Shown piece by piece: positions 1,036 through 9,253 of a stretch of 26,480 nt of DNA. The notes below the pieces were generated by a model. The model did no database searches. It was not told the DNA's origin and worked only from the letters and a program-made list of their open reading frames with translations. The stretch lies in IMG/VR virus record IMGVR_UViG_3300008266_000401, positions 1 to 26,480 of that record; one strand, given 5' to 3'. The DNA is from a virus. Position numbers and translations under genes: made by a program. Numbering within the stretch: position 1 is the stretch's first letter; each line of letters opens with the position of its first letter.

Positions 1036-1473
1036 TTATCCTCGACCTAATCTCATTGCTCGCATTTGGTTGGCTGCCAATCCAGATAAATTTGCACCAA
1101 ATTGCTGCATGGTTTTAGATGTATCACCAACTTTTAATTCTGGATTTCCTATATCTGATACACCAGCTGCTCTATTTGTTGACGAAAATTGTCTTGGAAC
1201 TGATGCTCCTAGAGCAGCTACCATACCCTCTGCTCTTTCTCGTCTCGCTTTCAAGTATGCTTGTTCACCACCAATACCAACTCTTGGTGGTATATTTACT
1301 GGTCTGGACATTATGTTTCCAATTCTTTCAAGTCCTCTCCGTGCAATACCCTGAGTTTGCTGTTGTGGATTTACATAATTTCTTCCCGAAACCATACTTG
1401 ATAATTGACCATATGTTGTTTCTGACAAAGAATTTCTGAGATGTTCTTTATAGATTTCTTTTAGATTTTTCAT
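1036..1473 (-). CDS. Putative internal head protein with capsid-targeting-like leader (145 aa)
   Basis: The N-terminus MKNLKEIYKEHLRNSLSE resembles the leaders of the divergently transcribed genes from 1499 onward. The candidate prohead-protease site L16-S17-E18, followed by T, lies later than the usual position 10. The rest is basic and rich in Gly, Ala, Arg and Gln, without membrane segments or a fold I recognise; it ends MRAMRLGRG. The ATG is six bases downstream of a TATAAATA late box on the minus strand. A packaged head protein is inferred from the leader and neighbours. The weaker leader match makes this less certain than for the plus-strand genes. Confidence 0.6.
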   Translation of the reverse strand: MKNLKEIYKEHLRNSLSETTYGQLSSMVSGRNYVNPQQQTQGIARRGLERIGNIMSRPVNIPPRVGIGGEQAYLKARRERAEGMVAALGASVPRQFSSTNRAAGVSDIGNPELKVGDTSKTMQQFGANLSGLAANQMRAMRLGRG

Positions 1474-1479
1474 ATATTA

Positions 1480-1491
1480 TATTTATAAATA
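1480..1491. promoter_or_regulatory. Palindromic divergent late promoter
   Basis: TATTTATAAATA is a perfect 12-bp palindrome. Read on the plus strand it contains TATAAATA (1484-1491), 7 bases before ATG 1499. Read on the minus strand it contains TATAAATA (1487 to 1480), 6 bases before ATG 1473. TATAAATA is the T4 late promoter -10 element, which needs no -35 box. One element therefore appears to drive two diverging operons. Confidence 0.8.
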
Positions 1492-1498
1492 ATTAAAT

Positions 1499-1828
1499 AT
1501 GAAATCTTTTAAACAATACATTATTGAAGAAGATGAAGAGAAGCCCAGTAGAATGGGCCACTTGATTAAAATTGGAACCAAGATGCAAGATGCAGATTTT
1601 TGGATCACTCGCAGAGGTTCGATTGACAAAATTGGGCATCCATCGAAAGAATATAATCCAGAACACTTTGGTGTGAAAGTGACAAGAACAGATGTTCTAG
1701 ATCCTCGCTATGCTTATTACATGTTTCAACATTTGGCAACCTCTGGTCATTTTCGTCAATTCGCCAAAGGTGCTACAAATTTGGTGAATATAAAAGCAAA
1801 TCATATTACGGATATACCAATCAAATGA
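1499..1828 (+). CDS. Capsid-targeted protein with HsdS-like target-recognition half-domain (109 aa)
   Basis: Residues 1-10, MKSFKQYIIE, fit the T4 internal-protein targeting peptide with cleavage predicted after I8-I9-E10. The body has the pattern of a type I restriction specificity-subunit recognition domain: WITRRGSIDKIG (35-46), a DPRYAYYMFQHL stretch (68-79) like the HsdS YLYYYL segment, and KGATNLVNIKANHITDIPI (90-108), matching the usual ending in G-[ST]-x(n)-I-x(3)-[DN]-[IL]-x(2)-[IL]-P-[IL]. At 109 residues it is only about half of one HsdS repeat. It is first in the plus-strand cargo operon and overlaps the next gene by 4 nt. An anti-restriction role by mimicking the S subunit is inferred. 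The S-subunit match was made by eye. Confidence 0.6.
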   Translation: MKSFKQYIIEEDEEKPSRMGHLIKIGTKMQDADFWITRRGSIDKIGHPSKEYNPEHFGVKVTRTDVLDPRYAYYMFQHLATSGHFRQFAKGATNLVNIKANHITDIPIK

Positions 1829-2256
1829 AATCTTTTAAGAAATATATTTTTGAAAATTCTAAACCGAATTATAGTGGTGTTGTACTGACACCAAAAAGTA
1901 GAGAATTGTTACTCTCCCATCCAGAAATATCATCAAGATTATCAAAGCAGGGTCTTGAGAAAATTGGTCATCATATGACAATCAAAATGGGTGGTTTAGC
2001 AGGCACTGAGCATAAAACAGGAACTGCTGCCACTCTAACAGCCACACACATTGGTCATCTCGGTGATTCTGACAATCCTTCAGTCGTTGCGGTGAGAGTA
2101 TCAGGGCATCCATCTGAAAATAAAACACCACACATTACTCTTGGTGTGAATCGTGAACTTGGTGGAAAACCATTCCATTCAAACAAAATAGAAAATTGGC
2201 AAGCTTTATCAGAACCAATTGAGTTGTCTGGAGAAGTTCAGGAGATTTTTAAATGA
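1825..2256 (+). CDS. Capsid-targeted 2H phosphoesterase-like protein (143 aa)
   Basis: Leader MKSFKKYIFE (1-10) predicts prohead-protease cleavage before N11. The body carries two HxT motifs, H50-M51-T52 in GHHMTIKMG and H103-I104-T105 in PHITLGVN, each in a beta-strand-like setting. This is the signature of 2H phosphoesterases, which act on 2',3'-cyclic or 2'-5' phosphodiester bonds. The length matches small members of the superfamily. T4 Acb1, which destroys the cyclic nucleotides of CBASS defence, belongs to the same superfamily and has about 150 residues. The following stretch GGKPFHSNKIENWQ is typical of some 2H relatives. An injected enzyme that degrades a signalling nucleotide or repairs or cleaves RNA is inferred; the substrate cannot be read from sequence. 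Confidence 0.7.
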   Translation: MKSFKKYIFENSKPNYSGVVLTPKSRELLLSHPEISSRLSKQGLEKIGHHMTIKMGGLAGTEHKTGTAATLTATHIGHLGDSDNPSVVAVRVSGHPSENKTPHITLGVNRELGGKPFHSNKIENWQALSEPIELSGEVQEIFK

Positions 2257-2588
2257 AATCATTTAAAGAACATTTAAATAAACAATTGATAAATGAAATT
2301 GGAGATACTCCAATGGGTCGGCAAATGCTGGCAAGGTATGCTGGTAAAGCGCAAAAGTTCATAGATCAGGCGGCATCAAGAGCCTTTAAAATGTATGACA
2401 GAGCACAGATCATGCAAGATGCTAAAAGAAAAGAGGGATTGCTAAATATAGGTGCTGGTGAGATTAGAAGTAATAGGTATGGGAATAGAGTGCGTGGATT
2501 GTTTGCAGCAAAAAAAATTCTAAAAGGCGCACCTCCAGAAGAGGTTCCAGAATTAAATAAATTGTACAGACAAGAAAGAGGAGAATGA
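2253..2588 (+). CDS. Putative capsid-targeted basic protein (111 aa)
   Basis: It starts MKSFKEHLNKQLINEIG, with a candidate cleavage site after I13-N14-E15, five residues later than in most neighbours. The phrase QLINEIG followed by D/E-T recurs in the 4334-4684 protein, so the two leaders are related. The body is helical and basic (GRQMLARYAGKAQKFID, then a long Lys/Arg-rich stretch), with no Cys and no membrane segment. I do not recognise a fold. DNA association inside the head is plausible from the charge and from the T4 internal-protein precedent. Both ends overlap neighbouring genes by 4 nt. Confidence 0.65.
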   Translation: MKSFKEHLNKQLINEIGDTPMGRQMLARYAGKAQKFIDQAASRAFKMYDRAQIMQDAKRKEGLLNIGAGEIRSNRYGNRVRGLFAAKKILKGAPPEEVPELNKLYRQERGE

Positions 2589-3376
2589 AATCATTTAAGC
2601 AATACATCTCCGAGGATATAATTGGTGGATATGATCCAAATTATATCTACAGAGAAAATTTAGGTCCAAAAAAAATAAAATCTTTAGACCAGTTGGTTAA
2701 GAAGATTGGTGTAAACTATGATCTTGATAATTTGAACAGCACCCGTGTTGATTTAAATGATCAATATCATATTCGTTATGTGAAATACAAGTCGAAGGGT
2801 GATGACAGAACACCACCTAGAGATTTATTGGCGGTTCATGTTTTCTCCAGTGCCCCAGGGCATGAAAGAACTGCTCTGGCAGAATATAAACTGTCCCACG
2901 ATCCAAATAATGTTGTGAAGACTTCCGATGGTAGAGAGATAAAAATGTTTAGTGGAAGTCCTGAGAAAGTAAGAAGAGATACCAAGCGTGGAGTTTTTTC
3001 TTTACCAAAAAATATATTACACACCATAGCAAACTCAACTGGATATGGAATCATGAGCGGATTCAGTCAAACAAAGGGTGGAACAGAACTTTGGAGAAAG
3101 GCCGTGAGACATGGACATGAGTCTGGACATCATGTGAGTAGAATGTATCAATTTAGCAAAAGAAATCCAGAAACCAGAAAAATTTCCAGTGAATGGAAAG
3201 TTGTTGGAAAATCGACACCAAGAACATTCCAAGATGCATATACTGGTGATGTTTCTTTAAGAAAAACTGGAAATAAATCAAGAATTCCAAAAAGAGATTT
3301 CGATCTTCCACCAGAGAAAAATGTTTATGATACCGTTACTAGACTTTATACACACCTTGGAATTTTACCAAAATGA
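2585..3376 (+). CDS. Putative capsid-targeted protein, largest of the island (263 aa)
   Basis: Leader MKSFKQYISE (1-10) predicts cleavage before D11. This is the largest cargo candidate and the most likely to be an enzyme. Residues 79-102 (RDLLAVHVFSSAPGHERTALAEYK) look like beta strands of a folded domain. The GFSQTKGGTELWRK stretch (159-172) resembles a motif I associate with phage proteins sometimes labelled acetyltransferase-like. HESGH at 178-182 formally fits the HExxH metalloprotease pattern, but its surroundings are polar and Gly-rich, so I do not rely on it. The C-terminus is basic. The function is unknown; the leader and operon position suggest packaging and injection. Confidence 0.65.
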   Translation: MKSFKQYISEDIIGGYDPNYIYRENLGPKKIKSLDQLVKKIGVNYDLDNLNSTRVDLNDQYHIRYVKYKSKGDDRTPPRDLLAVHVFSSAPGHERTALAEYKLSHDPNNVVKTSDGREIKMFSGSPEKVRRDTKRGVFSLPKNILHTIANSTGYGIMSGFSQTKGGTELWRKAVRHGHESGHHVSRMYQFSKRNPETRKISSEWKVVGKSTPRTFQDAYTGDVSLRKTGNKSRIPKRDFDLPPEKNVYDTVTRLYTHLGILPK

Positions 3377-3843
3377 AATCTTTCAAACAGATCATATCAG
3401 AAGCAAGACCAACTGGTCAAAAAAGATATTCTAGAGATACTGAAAAACTAGAAAAACTTTTAGATAAATTGTATTCCTCTGGAGTCAGTCAGAAAAAAAT
3501 AGACAGGGCAGAAATGCGCTTGGCTCGTAGAACAAATGACAATGAATACGATGTTGAGGATGAGTTGAGAAAACTTCCGTCGAATCTTGCACATGATGAC
3601 CATTCACCACCAGCAGAATCAGTTGAAGAATTGATGAGAAATGCTGCTAGAAAAATGTATACTGATGGTCATTCACATGAAATGGTTGGACAAAGTATAC
3701 GAGCAAGTATGGGAGATTTTTTACATTATCCAGTAGACATTCAACCAAATGTCACAAATAAAGAATTAGGTATGGAAGCTGAAAAAATGCTAGGTTCAAG
3801 AATAAATTTAATCAATAAAATAAAAGGGAAGAAAAATAAATGA
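3373..3843 (+). CDS. Putative capsid-targeted protein (156 aa)
   Basis: MKSFKQIISE (1-10) followed by A11 is the closest match in the island to the T4 leader MKTYQEFIAEA, including Ala after the cut. The body begins basic (RPTGQKRYSRDTEKLEKLLDKL), then has an acidic/His stretch (AHDDHSPPAESVEELM), a predicted helical segment around ARKMYTDGHSHEMVGQSI and a Lys-rich end. No catalytic motif is recognised. It overlaps both neighbours by 4 nt, so its translation is probably coupled to theirs. Confidence 0.65.
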   Translation: MKSFKQIISEARPTGQKRYSRDTEKLEKLLDKLYSSGVSQKKIDRAEMRLARRTNDNEYDVEDELRKLPSNLAHDDHSPPAESVEELMRNAARKMYTDGHSHEMVGQSIRASMGDFLHYPVDIQPNVTNKELGMEAEKMLGSRINLINKIKGKKNK

Positions 3844-4337
3844 ATTTATTTGAATCTGGTGGTAAAAAAATTCTTGGAGTTAATGCTCTCCAAACCAACG
3901 ACAGGGATGTTGTCAGAGCAATACGAAGATATCGCAATCATCTACATTTGGTAGCTGGAATGAAACATTGGAAAGTTCTAGATCAAAATAGAAATATTAT
4001 TCAAATTTTTCCAATGGGTTCAATTGGACCAAAAGCTGCAATCGGCACTTTGACTAAAGTTAGAAATTATCTTGAAAGTATTGGTCAATACACAAGACAA
4101 AAAGGCGAGTCTGGGGGAGTTACTGACTACAGACAAAATCAACAAGTTGAAAAACAACCACAAAAGCAAACAGTAAGTCCATTAAAAAGAACCGAAGAAA
4201 AAATAAAAAAATATGTGGAGTTGGTTAGAAAACCAACGATGGGAGCTGCAAAAAGGGCAAGACTTTCAAAAGCAATAGATAGATTAAAAGAAAATATAAG
4301 AACAAATTTAATAAATAAAGAAAAGAAGACTCAATGA
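3840..4337 (+). CDS. Basic protein of the cargo operon with atypical N-terminus (165 aa)
   Basis: The N-terminus MNLFESGGKK lacks the usual leader, although L3-F4-E5 followed by S is a minimal I/L-x-E site. Residues about 24-60 (VVRAIRRYRNHLHLVAGMKHWKVLDQNRNIIQIFPMG) look like a small alpha/beta domain, distantly reminiscent of HicA-type double-stranded-RNA-binding folds; this is only an impression. The C-terminal half is Gln-rich, then strongly Lys/Arg-rich and helical. Start and stop overlap neighbours by 4 nt. It may be packaged like its neighbours, but the evidence is operon position and charge rather than a clear leader. Confidence 0.55.
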   Translation: MNLFESGGKKILGVNALQTNDRDVVRAIRRYRNHLHLVAGMKHWKVLDQNRNIIQIFPMGSIGPKAAIGTLTKVRNYLESIGQYTRQKGESGGVTDYRQNQQVEKQPQKQTVSPLKRTEEKIKKYVELVRKPTMGAAKRARLSKAIDRLKENIRTNLINKEKKTQ

Positions 4338-4684
4338 AAAACTTTAAAAATTTCATAACCGAAAATCAATTAATAAATGAAATTGGTGAAACATCTGCTG
4401 GATTAGAAAAACTTCAAAAATTAAATAAAAGGTTATACGATAGGGCAACTTTTTACAATAAAAGAATTGGTAAAATAAAAAATCAAATTTCTGATATTTC
4501 TTCTGAAGTTCCAATGGTTGCCTCAGTATCACCATCTGAAGCTTTGGGTATGGTAGAAAAAATGAAAAGACTTAGAGATATAATGTCTGGTGATGAGGAA
4601 AGTTTTGATAGAGCAGCATCTAGATTTAAAAGATTTGAAAAAAATATAAATTTAATGATCAAAAGAAGAAAAGAATCAACTTAA
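4334..4684 (+). CDS. Putative capsid-targeted helical protein (116 aa)
   Basis: Leader MKNFKNFITE (1-10) gives a predicted cut before N11. A second site, I14-N15-E16, lies in the QLINEIGET phrase shared with the 2253-2588 protein. The rest is almost entirely predicted helix with heptad-like hydrophobic spacing (LEKLQKLNKRLYDRATFYNKRIGKIKNQI) and a basic end (FKRFEKNINLMIKRRK). No enzyme motif is present. It overlaps the preceding gene by 4 nt and is followed by a 17-nt gap, one of the few non-overlapping junctions in the island. Confidence 0.65.
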   Translation: MKNFKNFITENQLINEIGETSAGLEKLQKLNKRLYDRATFYNKRIGKIKNQISDISSEVPMVASVSPSEALGMVEKMKRLRDIMSGDEESFDRAASRFKRFEKNINLMIKRRKEST

Positions 4685-4701
4685 TTTAAAAGAGAATTAA
4701 A

Positions 4702-4908
4702 ATGAATGATAAAGTAAAAATGTATAAAAACATACTAACCAATAGAATTTTACAAAATGAAAGCAACATTGAAGATCTGGCAAGAGCAAATAGAAAGGCA
4801 ACTGGCAAACCAGATACTGGTCCATCAAAAAGAGCAGCGGCACTTGCAAGATTAAAATCTGAAATAGAAGCAGCAAAAAATAAAGAAGAACAAAAAGATA
4901 AAAAATGA
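4702..4908 (+). CDS. Small basic protein of the cargo operon (68 aa)
   Basis: The protein reads MNDKVKMYKNILTNRILQNES and continues as a Lys/Ala/Glu-rich helix ending in KNKEEQKDKK. It has no exact leader: the LQNE stretch places Gln rather than Leu three residues before the cut. The upstream AGAGAATTAAAATG has a weak purine run as a possible ribosome site. Its stop overlaps the next ATG by 4 nt, which supports real translation. The function is unknown. It may be packaged by piggybacking or act as a nucleic-acid-binding peptide; both are inferences from charge and neighbours. Confidence 0.5.
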   Translation: MNDKVKMYKNILTNRILQNESNIEDLARANRKATGKPDTGPSKRAAALARLKSEIEAAKNKEEQKDKK

Positions 4909-5444
4909 AATCTTTTTTAAATTTTATTCTTGAAGGTGAAGCAAAACTGAATAGGCTTTACATTGCTAAAGATTATGGTCGTAATCGTAGTAAAGAAGCT
5001 ACTGCTAAATTATTGTCAAGAATAGATAAAGAAGAAAAAAAAGTATTAGCAAAGCAATTGCTGCGTGGTGCTAAATACGGCAGAATAAGAAAAATAAATC
5101 CAGAAATTTTTAAAAATGTTCAAAAATCTAATATAGATTTTTGGAAATTTGGTCCTAGAACCAGAGAGCAGGAATCTTGGGAAAAAAGAAAAGAAATCTC
5201 AAGGGGAATTCGGGCTGGACAAATACAAATTGAAATGGAAAGACTTTATCCGTCATTGGTAAGTGCAGAGCAAGAAGCCCATAGAATCAGCACATCAAAT
5301 CCAAGATTTTCATACTCCAAGCAACCAAGGCTTAGAGTAATTAGAAGTATGTACAATAAATATTCTAAGGCTCTAATGAATCTTGGTATTGCAAAAAGAG
5401 AAGATCCACCAAGTATTGATCCACCAGAAGAGCAATTTTCATGA
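4905..5444 (+). CDS. Putative capsid-targeted basic protein (179 aa)
   Basis: Leader MKSFLNFILE (1-10) fits the targeting pattern, with cleavage predicted before G11. The body is strongly basic and helical in the first half (LSRIDKEEKKVLAKQLLRGAKYGRIRK). An aromatic patch follows (IDFWKFGPRTREQESWEKR), and the end is Pro/acidic (EDPPSIDPPEEQFS). No catalytic motif or known domain is seen. The body resembles a DNA-binding internal head protein more than an enzyme. Both ends overlap their neighbours by 4 nt. Confidence 0.6.
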   Translation: MKSFLNFILEGEAKLNRLYIAKDYGRNRSKEATAKLLSRIDKEEKKVLAKQLLRGAKYGRIRKINPEIFKNVQKSNIDFWKFGPRTREQESWEKRKEISRGIRAGQIQIEMERLYPSLVSAEQEAHRISTSNPRFSYSKQPRLRVIRSMYNKYSKALMNLGIAKREDPPSIDPPEEQFS

Positions 5445-5680
5445 ACAACATAAAAACTTTTTCTCAGTTTATAAAAGAACAAATGCAGAATCAACCATCT
5501 CCATTCTTTAATCCTGTTGGAATGGCTGGAAGATTGCCATCAAATACTCAACCACATAATAGAGCTGGTAGAGCTGGTAAAGATTTATATGGAAGACCAA
5601 AAAGTATTGGCCCTGGATATAACCTAATGGCTACTCGTCTTGGTCATACTGATTATACTAGTCCAGTTTCTGGAATGTGA
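5441..5680 (+). CDS. Putative capsid-targeted Gly/Pro-rich protein (79 aa)
   Basis: The leader is shifted by three residues: MNNIKTFSQFIKE, with the site I11-K12-E13 before Q14. The remainder is rich in Pro, Gly, Asn and Arg (SPFFNPVGMAGRLPSNTQ, then HNRAGRAGKDLYGRPKSIGPGYN) and looks disordered. With the leader removed only about 66 residues remain, similar to small T4 head peptides. The function is unknown. One base separates its stop from the next ATG. Confidence 0.55.
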   Translation: MNNIKTFSQFIKEQMQNQPSPFFNPVGMAGRLPSNTQPHNRAGRAGKDLYGRPKSIGPGYNLMATRLGHTDYTSPVSGM

Positions 5681-5681
5681 T

Positions 5682-6272
5682 ATGAAAACTTTCAAAAGCT
5701 ATCTTTTAGAATATTTATTAAAAAATACACAAGATGATTTTGATCCAGGTGCTTATACTGCCGATCAAATTTTAAAAGCTTATTCTAAACCTTTTGAATA
5801 TAAAACAGAAAAACACAAATACACATTCAAAAATTTCGGTCATGCCATGTCTTCGTATGTTGGTGCTGATCATGTTAGAAAATATTTAACATTTGTTGAT
5901 GAAAATTCAACCGACAGTCATGATCAGATCGACAGAGAACATTCTGATTTTGAAAAAGCACTACGAGAACATCATGATTCAATTATTGACAATTTAAGTA
6001 AAACTGATCCTATTGTTAATAAAACTATAAAAAAAATAAATGATTCTGGTATAAACTTTAAAAGTAATAATTTTAAAGGTTCAAAAGAAGACGCATCAAA
6101 GTTTATGATTAAAAAACTTGAGGCAAAGTATATGAAGAATCCAGAAACTTACGATGAAACTTTAATGCATTTTTCAAGAAAAGCAAGAGAAAATCATGAA
6201 AGTCATCCATTAAGTCACATATTTTCTGGAGTTGCAGATCCAGAATATGCTGCAATAAAGACAAAAATTTAA
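5682..6272 (+). CDS. Putative capsid-targeted protein, last gene of the first cargo block (196 aa)
   Basis: The start at ATG 5682 is chosen because it gives the leader MKTFKSYLLE, with a predicted cut before Y11, and follows the previous stop by one base; the frame extends upstream only inside the preceding gene. The body is rich in His, Asp, Lys and Ser, with repeated HxxxH-like spacing (DSHDQIDREHSDFEKALREHHDSIIDN and ENHESHPLSHIFSG), predicted to be mainly helical. The His-rich helices could bind metal, but no family is recognised. It converges with the HNH gene, overlapping its end by 4 nt. Confidence 0.6.
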   Translation: MKTFKSYLLEYLLKNTQDDFDPGAYTADQILKAYSKPFEYKTEKHKYTFKNFGHAMSSYVGADHVRKYLTFVDENSTDSHDQIDREHSDFEKALREHHDSIIDNLSKTDPIVNKTIKKINDSGINFKSNNFKGSKEDASKFMIKKLEAKYMKNPETYDETLMHFSRKARENHESHPLSHIFSGVADPEYAAIKTKI

Positions 6273-6712
6273 TATTTTAGTGGAACTGGCTGATTCAGAA
6301 GAAACATCTTTGCCTCTTCTGGTGTTCTGTTGCCCTTTTTTCGATTACATCTTAAGCAACAAGATGTGACATTCTTCCATTCATGCTTACCACCCCTAGA
6401 TCTTGGAATTATATGATCTATCGTGCAATTTTCCTTTGTCAATTCACAGCCACAGTATTGGCACATGTAATCGTCTCTTCTTAGAATATTTTTTCTAGAA
6501 GGACTAAATTCTTTATATGGAATATAAACATATTTCTTTAATACAATATGTTTTGGCAATTTGAATATTCCACTGGTAGTTTGGATATCGATAAATTCTT
6601 CTTCGGTGCATGGACTCACTTTACCATTGAGTACCAAACACACCGCTTTTTTCCAATCAATTTCGAATATCTTCTCGTAAGATACATTATAAAGATTAAC
6701 TACTAAATTCAT
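6269..6712 (-). CDS. HNH endonuclease (147 aa)
   Basis: The classic free-standing HNH architecture is present: an N-terminal strand-rich half (residues 1-65), then C84-x-x-C87, D99-H100 in CTIDHIIPRSRGG, N114 and C119-x-x-C122-N123, ending NRKKGNRTPEEAKM. The paired Cys bind structural zinc and the D-H/N residues form the metal-dependent nicking or cutting site. The start at 6712 is chosen because the family begins at this point (MNLVVNLYNVSYEK) and a TAAATA box lies 5 nt upstream on this strand; a 9-residue longer frame exists. The gene is inserted head-on against the cargo genes, as expected for a homing-type mobile gene. A role in DNA packaging or host-DNA degradation is also possible. Confidence 0.9.
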   Translation of the reverse strand: MNLVVNLYNVSYEKIFEIDWKKAVCLVLNGKVSPCTEEEFIDIQTTSGIFKLPKHIVLKKYVYIPYKEFSPSRKNILRRDDYMCQYCGCELTKENCTIDHIIPRSRGGKHEWKNVTSCCLRCNRKKGNRTPEEAKMFLLNQPVPLKY

Positions 6713-6788
6713 AATAATATTTAGGCTTGACAACCACACAAAGATTATATGTATTTTTTCAAAGTTGTCAAGGCTTTTATATTATTTT

Positions 6789-6796
6789 TATAAATA
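6789..6796 (+). promoter_or_regulatory. T4-type late promoter for the second cargo block
   Basis: An exact TATAAATA box ends 5 bases before ATG 6802. There is no -35 box, as expected for T4 late promoters. The transcript would start at or inside the start codon, so it would be leaderless or nearly so. Confidence 0.75.
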
Positions 6797-6801
6797 TAAT
6801 T

Positions 6802-7014
6802 ATGGGCATAATAGAAAATACAAATAAAAAATTCAATGAAAATGAAAAATATTATTTTGCCTCTTATATAAATTCTGAAGGATATGTTTTTGAATTGTTA
6901 TTAACTGAAAAAGAATTTGACAAAGCAGTCAAAAGGGCTGAAAAGAATCCAGAAGATATTCCGAACGAATATATAGTACTACAAGGATATAAAGGAAAAA
7001 AGGTAGAAAAATGA
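6802..7014 (+). CDS. Small conserved phage protein, paralogue of the 10935 gene (70 aa)
   Basis: The start at ATG 6802 is chosen because it follows the late box directly; the longer frame would begin upstream of the promoter. Residues about 17-45 read YYFASYINSEGYVFELLLTEKE and continue FDKAVKRAEKNPEDIP. This matches the 10935-11147 protein (LYF...LLFTEKEIVKASKRI), so the two are paralogues. The LTEKE-x(2)-KA-x-KRA-x-x-NPED ending is common in small phage proteins of unknown function. It overlaps the following leader-bearing gene by 4 nt. Confidence 0.65.
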   Translation: MGIIENTNKKFNENEKYYFASYINSEGYVFELLLTEKEFDKAVKRAEKNPEDIPNEYIVLQGYKGKKVEK

Positions 7015-7232
7015 AAAATTTCAAAGAACTATTTGAAGAAATAATGTCCAAAAGCGGAAGGGAAGTTTCCGATACCGAAAGAACTAGAGATAGAACAAGA
7101 AGATCTATTGGAATCAGGGTCACTAAAGGCTCCCGTGGAAATGTTCAGGATCTCTTAAAAAGTGGTAGAAAGAAATCAATAAAGGGTAAGTCAGTACATA
7201 AGCGTAAGAAGAATGTATTCAAGAAAAGATAA
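7011..7232 (+). CDS. Putative capsid-targeted very basic protein (73 aa)
   Basis: The leader MKNFKELFE places L7-F8-E9 before E10, one residue earlier than usual. The body is strongly basic and probably disordered, with an Arg-rich stretch (TERTRDRTRRSIGIRVTKG) and a Lys-rich end. This composition is expected of a DNA-condensing or DNA-bound internal head peptide. No domain is recognised. It overlaps the preceding gene by 4 nt and the next by 20 nt in another frame. Confidence 0.55.
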   Translation: MKNFKELFEEIMSKSGREVSDTERTRDRTRRSIGIRVTKGSRGNVQDLLKSGRKKSIKGKSVHKRKKNVFKKR

Positions 7233-7697: not shown

Positions 7698-7712
7698 AGT
7701 CTTCCTTTTTTT
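7686..7712 (+). terminator. Intrinsic terminator overlapping a stop codon
   Basis: GGAAGACTTTAAAGTCTTCC (7686-7705) is a perfect 20-base palindrome, forming an 8-bp stem with loop TTAA, followed by seven T. The stem includes the TAA stop of the 54-residue gene. The last T of the run is the first base of the next late promoter. Confidence 0.9.
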
Positions 7713-7719
7713 ATAAATA
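7712..7719 (+). promoter_or_regulatory. T4-type late promoter abutting a terminator
   Basis: An exact TATAAATA lies immediately after the terminator U-tract and 5 bases before ATG 7725. It restarts late transcription for the last two leader-bearing genes, with a predicted leaderless message. Confidence 0.75.
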
Positions 7720-7724
7720 TTTCT

Positions 7725-8213
7725 ATGTTACATTTTAAAGAATATATTTTAGAGCAAAGAAAAAATCTAATAGCTTTATCGCCAGGGGCTTTGAGGGCTG
7801 GTGTTAAATCTGCTGTAACTGGAAAAGATCCAAGACTAGAAAGACTTATATACAGTAGAGCTAGTAAAAGTAATCCAAAGGGTTGGATTAGACTTATAAC
7901 GAAAAAACCATCTGGTGAAGTTGAAAACCTAGGTGATACCCCTAGAGTTAAATCGGAACAGCCGAGAGCAGAGAAAACGATTGCATCAACTGAAAGATTG
8001 ACACCAGAACAAGAAATTTTACAAACTCCAGGGTTCCAAGTAGTAGAACCATCAGCAGAACAATTGGCTAAAGATGAGGAGAGGGGAATAGTAGATTTAA
8101 ATAAAATTGTAGATAGAAGAAAATTTAATTATCTACTTCATAAACAAGGTATAGATCCCTATTTTGCACGATTAAGAGTTAGAATAGCAAAGCAAAGATT
8201 GGGTAAAAAATGA
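7725..8213 (+). CDS. Putative capsid-targeted protein (162 aa)
   Basis: Leader MLHFKEYILE (1-10) gives a predicted cut before Q11. Position 2 departs from the usual Lys but the F-K-x-Y-I-L-E core is intact. The body starts with a Gly/Ala-rich stretch (LSPGALRAGVKSAVTGKD) and continues basic. A Pro/Glu-rich linker follows at about 65-115, and the end is Arg/Lys-rich and helical (DRRKFNYLLHKQ, RLRVRIAKQRLGKK). The arrangement of two basic ends around an acidic linker suggests two nucleic-acid-contacting parts. No known family is recognised. It overlaps the next gene by 4 nt. Confidence 0.6.
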   Translation: MLHFKEYILEQRKNLIALSPGALRAGVKSAVTGKDPRLERLIYSRASKSNPKGWIRLITKKPSGEVENLGDTPRVKSEQPRAEKTIASTERLTPEQEILQTPGFQVVEPSAEQLAKDEERGIVDLNKIVDRRKFNYLLHKQGIDPYFARLRVRIAKQRLGKK

Positions 8214-8412: not shown

Positions 8413-8937
8413 ATGAACATCTTTGTAGTTGATTCAGACCCAGAAATTGCAGCAACCAATCTATGCGATAAGCATGTTGTTAAAATGATTGTGGAAGGTT
8501 GTCAGATGCTCTCCACGATCCATAGAATGGGAGCTAGTCATATTGTGTTTGCTGGTCAAGTTGATTTGTACAAGATGGCGTTCGAAAACCATCCTTGTAC
8601 AATTTGGGCAAGAGAGACAACTGCAAATTACATGTGGTTGGCTAGACACACACTTGAACTGTGTATGCAGTATGAATTGCGTTATAAGAAAATTCACAAG
8701 TGTTACGATATGGCATTTTGGTTTACTATACATCTTCCTGCCCGTGTTCCTTACGGAAAGTTGACTCCATTTGCTCAGGCTATGCCAGACATCTATAAGA
8801 ATGAGAATGCAGTGGTGGCATATAGAAACTATTATATTTTCGAAAAGTCTAGATTTGCCAAGTGGAAGTTCACGGATTGTCCAAATTGGTATACGGAAGG
8901 GATCAAGAATGTGCGTGTGCCAGTACTGCAATCGTGA
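8413..8937 (+). CDS. Conserved phage protein of unknown function (174 aa)
   Basis: ATG 8413 (MNIFVVDSDPEIAATNLCDK) is preferred over the in-frame TTG 6 bases upstream because the family begins MNIFV-x-D-x-D-P. The pattern continues CDKHVVKMIVEGCQMLST, ENHPCTIWARET, NYMWLARH, LTPFAQAMPD and YRNYYIFEKSRFAKWK. I recognise this as a family found in many phages and some bacteria, sometimes labelled as a DNA-repair glycosylase, but I know no firm function. The many conserved His, Cys, Trp and Asp/Glu suggest an enzyme. Its 3' end overlaps the following HNH gene by 29 nt in another frame. Confidence 0.8.
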   Translation: MNIFVVDSDPEIAATNLCDKHVVKMIVEGCQMLSTIHRMGASHIVFAGQVDLYKMAFENHPCTIWARETTANYMWLARHTLELCMQYELRYKKIHKCYDMAFWFTIHLPARVPYGKLTPFAQAMPDIYKNENAVVAYRNYYIFEKSRFAKWKFTDCPNWYTEGIKNVRVPVLQS

Positions 8938-9253
8938 ATTTCAAAAGAAACATAAAAGAGGTTGCACAGTATGTCAATCGTGTGATACCACAAGACGAAG
9001 ATGGAAATCAAGAATAGAATTGATCGAAATGCTTGGTGGTAAATGTACTAAATGTGGATTCAGTGAAAATCCAGCATCAATACAGTTTCATCATGTAGAT
9101 CCATCAACAAAGAAATATTCTTTATTTTCTAAAAACTTACTGAGAAAAGATCGATATGAAGAAGCACAGAAGTGTATACTACTTTGCGCGAATTGCCACC
9201 TTCAAGAACATACGAATAAAGAACTATTGAAGAAGTTTGGCTTGATGCCTTGA
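8909..9253 (+). CDS. HNH endonuclease-like protein with N-terminal zinc ribbon (114 aa)
   Basis: The start at ATG 8909 gives the N-terminus MCVCQYCNREF. Two zinc modules are visible: an N-terminal cluster (C4-x-x-C7 with C19-x-x-C22-x-x-C25), and the HNH-type core GGKCTKCGF (C46, C49), FHHVD (H61-H62), a KCILLCANCHLQEH block (C93-x-x-C96-H97, H101). This is the usual arrangement of short phage and bacterial HNH nucleases, in which the HH pair and the CxNCH His bind the catalytic metal. The start lies within the 3' end of the upstream gene, so translation is coupled or the gene has invaded it. Whether it homes or serves the phage cannot be told. Confidence 0.8.
   Translation: MCVCQYCNREFQKKHKRGCTVCQSCDTTRRRWKSRIELIEMLGGKCTKCGFSENPASIQFHHVDPSTKKYSLFSKNLLRKDRYEEAQKCILLCANCHLQEHTNKELLKKFGLMP

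What the first reader, a model, noticed from the sequence alone, without database searches (positions are those of the whole stretch)
1499..1828. Packaged half-domain resembling a type I restriction S subunit
Residues 35-108 follow the HsdS recognition-domain pattern (RRGSIDKIG, YAYYMFQHL, GATNLVNIKANHITDIPI) but no S-subunit spacer helix and no second domain are present. A delivered decoy that competes for HsdM or redirects specificity would be a new kind of anti-restriction device.
Basis: partly seen in the sequence, partly recalled or inferred. Interest (0 to 1): 0.75.

Follow-up and report, generated by a model that had tools for sequence, protein, structure and literature searches.

The report
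Capsid-targeted mini DNA-recognition domain (HsdS-type)
A virus of the T4 kind appears to pack into its head, for injection with its DNA, a stripped-down copy of the part bacteria use to recognise DNA in type I restriction enzymes; the same mini-domain is widespread but undescribed in plasmids and other phages, and what it does in the cell is still untested.

Summary
ORF 1499-1828 (109 aa) is a T4-type capsid-targeting peptide (residues 1-10) followed by a ~90-aa globule whose confident model (core pLDDT ~95) matches only target-recognition domains (TRDs) of HsdS subunits and related adenine methyltransferases; family profiles agree (hhalign E 1.7e-8; best of 30 shuffled controls 0.019). There is no spacer helix and no second TRD; the ORF stops where the helix would begin. 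It is not half a domain but a compact TRD lacking a ~40-residue segment with two of five DNA-contact loops; the three retained loops are strongly conserved.

It heads a same-strand run of small, mostly basic proteins with the same leader. Relatives occur in other capsid-targeted proteins, giant multidomain phage proteins, and as stand-alone genes in temperate phages and 268 plasmids, where a helix-turn-helix partner gene follows. I found no published description.

The HsdM-decoy idea is not supported: the helices that anchor HsdS to HsdM are absent, and the domain is far better conserved (median 51% identity) than specificity domains (20%). Most likely it is a fixed-specificity DNA-binding module delivered with the genome. 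Delivery and function are inferred. New variant of a known kind; interest 0.6.

The parts
1499..1828 (+). ORF of 109 aa: capsid-targeting leader + mini-TRD (the finding)
   Evidence: relatives
1499..1528 (+). Residues 1-10, MKSFKQYIIE: capsid-targeting sequence; F4, Y7, I8, E10 fall on the positions shown to matter in T4 IPIII (4 and 7 for targeting, 8 and 10 for processing); predicted prohead-protease cut after E10 or E11
   Evidence: leader strict in 8 of 168 ATG ORFs, all in this + strand run; PMC9026906
1550..1825 (+). Residues 18-109: mini-TRD globule; last strand (DIPIK) ends where the HsdS spacer helix (PLPPLxEQ...) would begin
1610..1621 (+). R38-S41 loop, equivalent of the TTE-HsdS DNA-contact loop R280-A281 (R39-G40)
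   Evidence: loop assignment in PMC3047542; conservation
1664..1672 (+). H56-G58, equivalent of the TTE-HsdS DNA-contact loop R297-G298 (register +/-1)
1769..1789 (+). G91-N97 (GATNLVN), equivalent of the TTE-HsdS DNA-contact loop T332-N334
   Evidence: near-invariant in family
1484..1491 (+). TATAAATA, T4-late-promoter-like element 7 nt before the ATG; another lies back to back at 1480-1487 (-)
   Evidence: motif count in window 7 against 4.1 expected, so suggestive only
1825..2256 (+). Next gene (4-nt ATGA overlap): same leader + 2H phosphoesterase fold with HxT motifs (HHMTI, PHITL)
2253..2588 (+). Array gene, leader-like MKSFKEHLNK, basic
2585..3376 (+). Array gene, leader MKSFKQYISE, basic; homologues in the arrays of L001 and L003
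3373..3843 (+). Array gene, leader MKSFKQIISE, basic
3840..4337 (+). Array gene without the strict leader (MNLFESGG), very basic (pI 10.5)
4334..4684 (+). Array gene, leader MKNFKNFITE, basic
4905..5444 (+). Array gene, leader MKSFLNFILE, basic
5682..6272 (+). Array gene, leader MKTFKSYLLE, near-neutral
7011..7232 (+). Array gene, leader MKNFKELFEE, very basic (pI 11.5)
7725..8213 (+). Array gene, leader-like MLHFKEYILE, basic, with TATAAATA at 7712-7719 just upstream

Best explanation
The gene encodes an internal head protein of a T4-like phage: a capsid-targeting leader carries a minimal HsdS-type target-recognition globule into the prohead, the prohead protease removes the leader after E10/E11, and the ~98-residue basic domain enters the host together with the phage DNA. 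There it most likely works as a fixed-specificity DNA-binding module, using the three retained recognition loops (R38-S41, H56-G58, G91-N97), acting in the first minutes of infection on DNA transactions such as masking sites from host enzymes or regulating early events. Shown here: TRD fold and homology, leader, array, missing spacer helix, missing central segment, conservation of the retained loops, spread of the domain. Inferred: packaging, cleavage, injection, DNA binding and the biological effect.
For: Fold and homology. Leader and phage type: T4-type leader positions (with PMC9026906), gp32-like ssDNA-binding protein and T4-type baseplate, tube and head-completion families in the window, S77 prohead protease in 8 of 30 relative-bearing records, including the record of L003, which has the same kind of array. 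In L003 a second, internal leader (LRSFSSFIQE) directly precedes the domain. DNA binding: the three retained contact loops are strongly conserved; mature protein pI 9.3-9.5 and 32 of 40 relatives above pI 8; median pairwise identity 51% against 20% among HsdS TRDs, as expected if the ligand does not vary; in temperate phages and plasmids the stand-alone version is followed by a partner with a regulator-like, HTH-type C-terminal region.
Against: Two of five DNA-contact loops are missing; for EcoKI neither S nor M binds DNA alone (PMC3874165), so a lone TRD may bind DNA weakly or not at all. Conserved glycines may be structural. The HTH reading of the partner is by eye and weak PHROG matches to regulators. 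No virion proteomics, no binding data, no proof of cleavage. Host unknown.
Confidence: 0.42

Rival explanations
1. Anti-restriction decoy: the injected mini-TRD binds HsdM (or another gamma-class adenine MTase such as a BREX or type IIG enzyme) in place of HsdS, blocks assembly, or redirects specificity.
For: True TRD homology; the partner gene in temperate phages and plasmids begins with an HsdS-like I-x-(I)-x-LP-x-x-x-x-Q stretch that continues as the HsdS helix would, as if a TRD-helix unit had been split into two genes; T4 IPI and P1 Dar set precedents for injected anti-restriction proteins (PMC9026906, PMC9024508); one partner-bearing plasmid has an annotated antirestriction gene nearby.
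Against: The CR helices that make the four-helix-bundle anchor to HsdM are absent; TRD-HsdM contacts are few hydrogen bonds (PMC9613975, PMC3047542). The partner is not found in the window or in the T4-like loci. Conservation across very different elements is not what competition for diverse HsdM subunits predicts. No co-located type I genes.
Confidence: 0.18
2. TRD fold reused as a protein- or RNA-binding adaptor: the domain recognises a conserved host factor (transcription, replication or recombination machinery) and TRD ancestry says little about function.
For: It sits in multidomain proteins with ADP-ribosyltransferase, nucleotidyltransferase, GNAT and ParB-like domains, i.e. a general take-over setting; family conserved beyond the loops. 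Esub1, an HsdS-like half protein, is in the PDB bound to another protein, Prx (8vsr).
Against: The best-conserved positions include those equivalent to DNA-contact loops.
Confidence: 0.3
3. Passive head protein or DNA condenser: basic cargo that helps assembly or packaging, with no specific function in the host.
For: Array proteins are mostly basic; T4 IPIII affects head assembly (PMC9026906).
Against: The domain also exists outside phages, on plasmids, and in phage copies without a leader, so its role is not tied to heads.
Confidence: 0.07
4. Decayed fragment of an HsdS gene without function.
For: HsdS ancestry and truncated form.
Against: Intact ORF in a tightly overlapping array; at least 29 distinct versions below ~88% similarity with conserved ends and invariant residues.
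Confidence: 0.02

Closest known systems
HsdS, type I restriction-modification specificity subunit (TRD of PF01420 type)
   Same: TRD fold; Z 9.4 to 1yf2, 8.1 to 7vru (PacII), 6.6 to 3okg (TTE), 6.5 to 2y7c (EcoKI); same strand/loop order from the DxLIxRxG hairpin to the IP(L/I) end
   Different: One TRD instead of two, no spacer (CR) helices, ~40-residue central segment missing, no HsdM/HsdR partner, far more conserved, capsid-targeting leader
Single-TRD S proteins ('type 1 1/2' MTases; EcoR124I(delta50), EcoDXXI and NgoAV half-S; Esub1 8vsq/8vsr)
   Same: A single TRD as a separate chain
   Different: The characterised half-S proteins keep the dimerisation helix and work with HsdM (PMC3874165); this one ends before the helix. 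Esub1 chain is 196-206 residues
T4 internal proteins (IPI, IPII, IPIII, Alt) and their capsid-targeting sequence
   Same: Ten-residue leader with aromatic residues at 4 and 7, hydrophobic at 8 and E at 10; small basic proteins in a T4-like phage; IPI is an injected inhibitor of a type IV restriction enzyme (PMC9026906)
   Different: Cargo fold is a TRD, unrelated to IPI; packaging not shown experimentally
Phage P1 Dar system (DarB, DdrA)
   Same: Virion-delivered, N-terminally targeted proteins that counter type I restriction (PMC9024508)
   Different: No sequence relation: DdrA, DarA, DdrB and Hdf do not match the family HMM
Polyvalent proteins of phages and conjugative elements (Iyer et al. 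2017)
   Same: Relatives of the domain are built into large multidomain phage proteins, one with the ART-PolyVal domain
   Different: Search of the main text found no mention of HsdS, S subunit or target recognition among the domains (PMC5512222); the window version is a single-domain protein
Pfam DUF6943 (PF22105)
   Same: Weak matches in 15 of 40 family members, best E 4.5e-7 for one; P0001 itself 0.019
   Different: P0001 is below the curated cut-off (15.6 against 27 bits); relation not resolved

Membership tests
HsdS type I specificity subunit | TRD globular fold | tested here: met
HsdS type I specificity subunit | Two TRDs in one chain (or a half-S that pairs) | tested here: not met
   one globule of ~90 aa, no second TRD in the ORF
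HsdS type I specificity subunit | Conserved-region (spacer/dimerisation) helix after the TRD | tested here: not met
   ORF ends at the closing strand; DSSP shows no long helix
HsdS type I specificity subunit | Pfam PF01420 above curated cut-off | tested here: not met
   no PF01420 match for P0001; best relative E 0.042, 14.5 against 22 bits
HsdS type I specificity subunit | Co-encoded HsdM | tested here: not met
   none recognised in the window ORFs by PHROGs/Pfam scans made here; N6_Mtase (PF02384) in only 2 of 30 relative-bearing records, many of them fragments
HsdS type I specificity subunit | Sequence-specific DNA recognition | not testable with these tools
   three of five contact loops retained; binding needs an experiment
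T4-type internal head protein (CTS cargo) | N-terminal capsid-targeting sequence with key residues 4, 7, 8, 10 | tested here: met
   F4, Y7, I8, E10; 8 strict leaders among 168 ATG ORFs, all in the 1499-7232 run; key positions from PMC9026906
T4-type internal head protein (CTS cargo) | T4-like phage | tested here: met
   gp32-like ssDNA-binding protein E 5e-103, head closure E 3e-51, baseplate hub E 1e-44, baseplate wedge subunits
T4-type internal head protein (CTS cargo) | gp21-type prohead protease in the same phage | tested here: inconclusive
   window is a 26-kb fragment without it; present in the L003 record (E 2e-33) with the same array and in 7 others
T4-type internal head protein (CTS cargo) | Presence of the processed protein in virions | not testable with these tools
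   needs virion proteomics
Single-TRD S proteins (type 1 1/2, half-S) | One TRD plus dimerisation helix, working with an M subunit | tested here: not met
   no helix
P1 Dar proteins | Sequence homology to DdrA, DarA, DdrB or Hdf | tested here: not met
   best score -0.7 bits; DarB itself not tested
Polyvalent proteins | Several unrelated effector domains in one chain | tested here: not met
   P0001 carries a single domain; relatives L019, L053, L129 are multidomain

The most novel reading that the evidence does not exclude
A previously undescribed family of stand-alone mini-TRDs, carried by plasmids, temperate phages (with an HTH partner that takes over the start of the HsdS helix) and T4-like phages (with a capsid-targeting leader instead), is a counter-defence system against adenine-methyltransferase-based immunity; T4-like phages have moved it into the capsid so that it acts before any phage gene is expressed.
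Probability: 0.2. Interest if true: 0.82.

Novelty: new variant of a known kind. Interest (0 to 1): 0.6.

Why it matters
HsdS TRDs are known as parts of methyltransferases. Here one has been cut loose, shortened, fixed in sequence and apparently turned into injected cargo, and the same domain is present on hundreds of plasmids, including plasmids of Klebsiella, Enterobacter, Salmonella and Pseudomonas, as 'hypothetical protein' with a conserved partner gene. Because laboratory-tractable plasmid versions exist, its DNA specificity and any effect on restriction can be tested directly. It also adds a fold to the set of proteins that T4-like phages deliver with their DNA, and the adjacent gene suggests that such arrays are a general route by which ready-made domains acquire a capsid leader.

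Tried and rejected
Single-sequence searches gave nothing decisive: Pfam (only DUF6943, 0.019), NCBIfam none, PDB phmmer none meaningful, tblastn on 50,697 GenBank phages none for P0001, L003, L007 and L116 queries. The weak Pantoea phage AAS21 hit aligns over 33 residues only (11 bits) and Phaeobacter phage MD18 is not a relative. Two scans of genome contigs found no chromosomal relative, but the patterns used were narrow, so this is not evidence of absence from chromosomes. P1 DdrA (13 kDa, reported as an EcoA antagonist) was considered as a possible relative and rejected. The idea that the phages carry their own HsdM partner was rejected for most (2 of 30 records). PHROG 2668 (554 positions) is matched in register by several relatives and also at a second place by the partner's leading motif, and rings in 9 of 14 control genomes; I read it as a phage HsdS-like family but could not inspect it. 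A pairwise profile match to TTE-HsdS alone failed; only the family-to-family alignment gave the mapping. Literature searches for Esub1/paratox, single-TRD orphans and HsdS in polyvalent proteins returned nothing on a mini-TRD family; the library holds open-licence papers only.

Full report
What is there. The window is a 26,480-base virus record. Its structural genes belong to a T4-like myovirus: a gp32-type ssDNA-binding protein (E 5e-103), a T4-type head-closure protein (E 3e-51), baseplate hub (E 1e-44), tail tube, tube cap and baseplate wedge families. At 1499 begins a same-strand run of small genes; successive genes from 1499 to 4684 overlap by four bases (ATGA), as the coordinates show. 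Eight of them start with the strict pattern M[KR]x[FY]xx[FYILH][ILMFV]xE, and these eight are the only ones among 168 ATG-initiated frames of 50 codons or more on both strands. Further members have near variants (2253, 5441, 7725). Most are basic, pI 9.2-11.5.

The leader. Black and colleagues showed for T4 IPIII that the first ten residues suffice for capsid targeting, with positions 4 and 7 important for targeting and 8 and 10 for processing (PMC9026906). P0001 has F4, Y7, I8, E10. A TATAAATA element lies 7 nt before the ATG at 1499 and another just before the CTS-like gene at 7725; the total of seven in the window against 4.1 expected is not significant by itself. The S77 prohead protease (gp21 type) is present in 8 of 30 records that bear relatives, among them the record of L003 (E 2e-33), whose array closely resembles this one.

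The domain. Scans of IMG/VR with growing alignments produced more than 80 loci and at least 29 distinct versions. AlphaFold2 on a 40-row alignment gave mean pLDDT 86.5, with blocks of 94-97 over residues 21-80 and disorder only in the leader. Foldseek against the PDB: ranks 1-25 are BsaXI S, MG438 S, a Vibrio MTase, CamA, PacII S, MjaXI S, TTE HsdS-type TRDs and Esub1; unrelated proteins start at rank 26 with probability 0.02. VIA-align: Z 9.4 (1yf2), 9.0 (7eew), 8.1 (7vru, 8cxt), 7.8 (8w0p), 6.6 (3okg), 6.5 (EcoKI 2y7c), and nothing but TRDs among the 31 rows shown. Sequence agrees: the family HMM finds HsdS TRDs in the right place, just before the IPLPPLxEQ motif, at up to 18.4 bits per domain against a maximum of 2.2 bits in 300 shuffles; hhalign gives E 1.7e-8 against a best of 0.019 in 30 column-shuffled controls. 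Homology to the HsdS TRD is therefore well supported, although no single member passes the Pfam Methylase_S cut-off.

What is missing. In the family alignment P0001 29-108 corresponds to TTE-HsdS 270-346, while residues 18-28 (RMGHLIKIGTK) resemble the first TRD strand (RLGEVCDII, TTE 218-226); the stretch between, about 40 residues, has no counterpart (the structural alignment to 3okg_B spans 211-347 with 84 aligned residues). The authors of the TTE structure list five TRD2 DNA-contact segments by comparison with M.TaqI: S230-S233, G248-K249, R280-A281, R297-G298, T332-N334 (PMC3047542). The first two fall in the missing stretch; the other three map to R39-G40, H56-F57 and T93-V96. Around them lie positions among the best conserved in the family: R38 97%, G40 92%, G58 100%, G91 97%, L95 97%, I98 100%. 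The ORF stops at the strand that closes the TRD, one or two residues before the spacer helix would begin.

Spread and architecture. The domain occurs (a) behind capsid leaders: the window, L001 (MKSFKIYLQE), L003 (an internal leader LRSFSSFIQE inside a 395-residue protein that also has a normal leader at its start), the L047 group (MRFTEIISE) and L020 (MRYKELITE); (b) inside large phage proteins of up to 1,726 residues that also carry ADP-ribosyltransferase (ART-PolyVal), nucleotidyltransferase-like, ParB_N-like, GNAT and cytidine-deaminase domains; (c) as stand-alone genes of about 95 codons in temperate-type phages and in 268 plasmid records. In class (c) a second gene follows: in 12 viral loci (45-53 nt downstream where measured) and, by an independent search, in 261 plasmids with an almost identical list of genera. 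It starts with an HsdS-like stretch (for example MKISIPLPSLSEQKKIAYEEG) and ends in a region that looks like an HTH regulator. This looks like an HsdS TRD-helix unit split into two genes with a new domain added. The HTH assignment is by eye with weak PHROG support. The partner is not found in the window or in the T4-like loci.

How it may work. Two facts speak against the decoy idea. First, HsdS is held by HsdM mainly through a four-helix bundle made of the HsdS conserved regions and the HsdM C-terminal tails; TRD-HsdM contacts are limited to several hydrogen bonds (PMC9613975; PMC3047542). That bundle cannot form here. Second, the domain is conserved at a median of 51% identity across very different elements, against 20% among HsdS TRDs in my set (the sets differ in sampling, so this is indicative). 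A constant ligand fits better: a common DNA motif or DNA in general, or a conserved host factor. With the retained contact loops, the basic charge and a regulator-like partner in other elements, I favour DNA binding (about 0.42), a protein- or RNA-binding adaptor next (0.3), the decoy third (0.18). The caveat is serious: for EcoKI neither S nor M binds DNA alone (PMC3874165), so a lone mini-TRD may need a partner.

Neighbour. The next gene (1825-2256) has the same leader in front of a 2H phosphoesterase: HHMTI and PHITL are invariant in two leaderless phage relatives, and a moderate model (pLDDT 66.7) matches CNPase at Z 11.1 and E 1.7e-4, fungal RNA kinase/ligase at Z 8.8 and anti-CBASS Acb1 at Z 6.8. 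So at least two array members are domains that exist elsewhere in phages without a leader and have acquired one here.

Verdict. Observation confirmed; interpretation partly supported (TRD, no helix, no second domain, packaged by inference; decoy not supported). It is not a member of HsdS, since defining features were tested and not met; it works, if at all, as a TRD. It fits the T4 internal-protein class by every feature testable here. I call it a new variant of a known kind, interest 0.6.

Noticed in passing
1825-2256 (+): Capsid-leader protein with a 2H phosphoesterase fold (CNPase-like, Z 11.1; Acb1 Z 6.8): possibly an injected enzyme acting on cyclic nucleotides or 2',3'-cyclic RNA ends. 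Leaderless relatives in L164 and L165.
   Followed up: partly
L116:8389-8820, L110:8309-8725, L140:6334-6756, L139:6675-7118: Undescribed partner gene of stand-alone mini-TRDs: HsdS-like LPxxxxQ start plus regulator-like HTH region; follows the mini-TRD in 12 viral loci and occurs in 261 plasmids.
   Followed up: partly
L003:4137-5324: 395-residue protein with a normal N-terminal leader and a second internal leader-like LRSFSSFIQE directly before the mini-TRD; the prohead protease could cut it into two cargoes.
   Followed up: no
1480-1491 and 7712-7719: TATAAATA elements 5-7 nt before head-type genes, on both strands at 1480-1491 (divergent ORFs 1473- and 1499+); T4-late-like and possibly leaderless transcripts.
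   Followed up: partly
1036-1473 (-): Divergent ORF starting MKNLKEIYKEHL, with a leader-like start; may be a further head protein.
   Followed up: no
L019:3795-7361: 1,189-residue phage protein combining a nucleotidyltransferase-like region, mini-TRD, ART-PolyVal (E 5e-40) and a sigma-70 region 1.1 match.
   Followed up: no
L169 (Klebsiella pneumoniae pCAV1344-40): Mini-TRD and partner lie about 1.7 kb downstream of an annotated antirestriction gene on the same strand.
   Followed up: no
6269-6739 (-) and 8771-9253 (+): HNH-type zinc-finger motifs (by eye: CxxC...HxxPxxxGG...CxxC-like) next to or inside the array; a similar ORF flanks the arrays of L001 and L003, suggesting homing-endonuclease traffic in this region.
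   Followed up: no
Pfam PF22105 (DUF6943): 15 of 40 mini-TRDs match this uncharacterised family weakly, one at E 4.5e-7; it may be a further branch of stand-alone TRDs.
   Followed up: no
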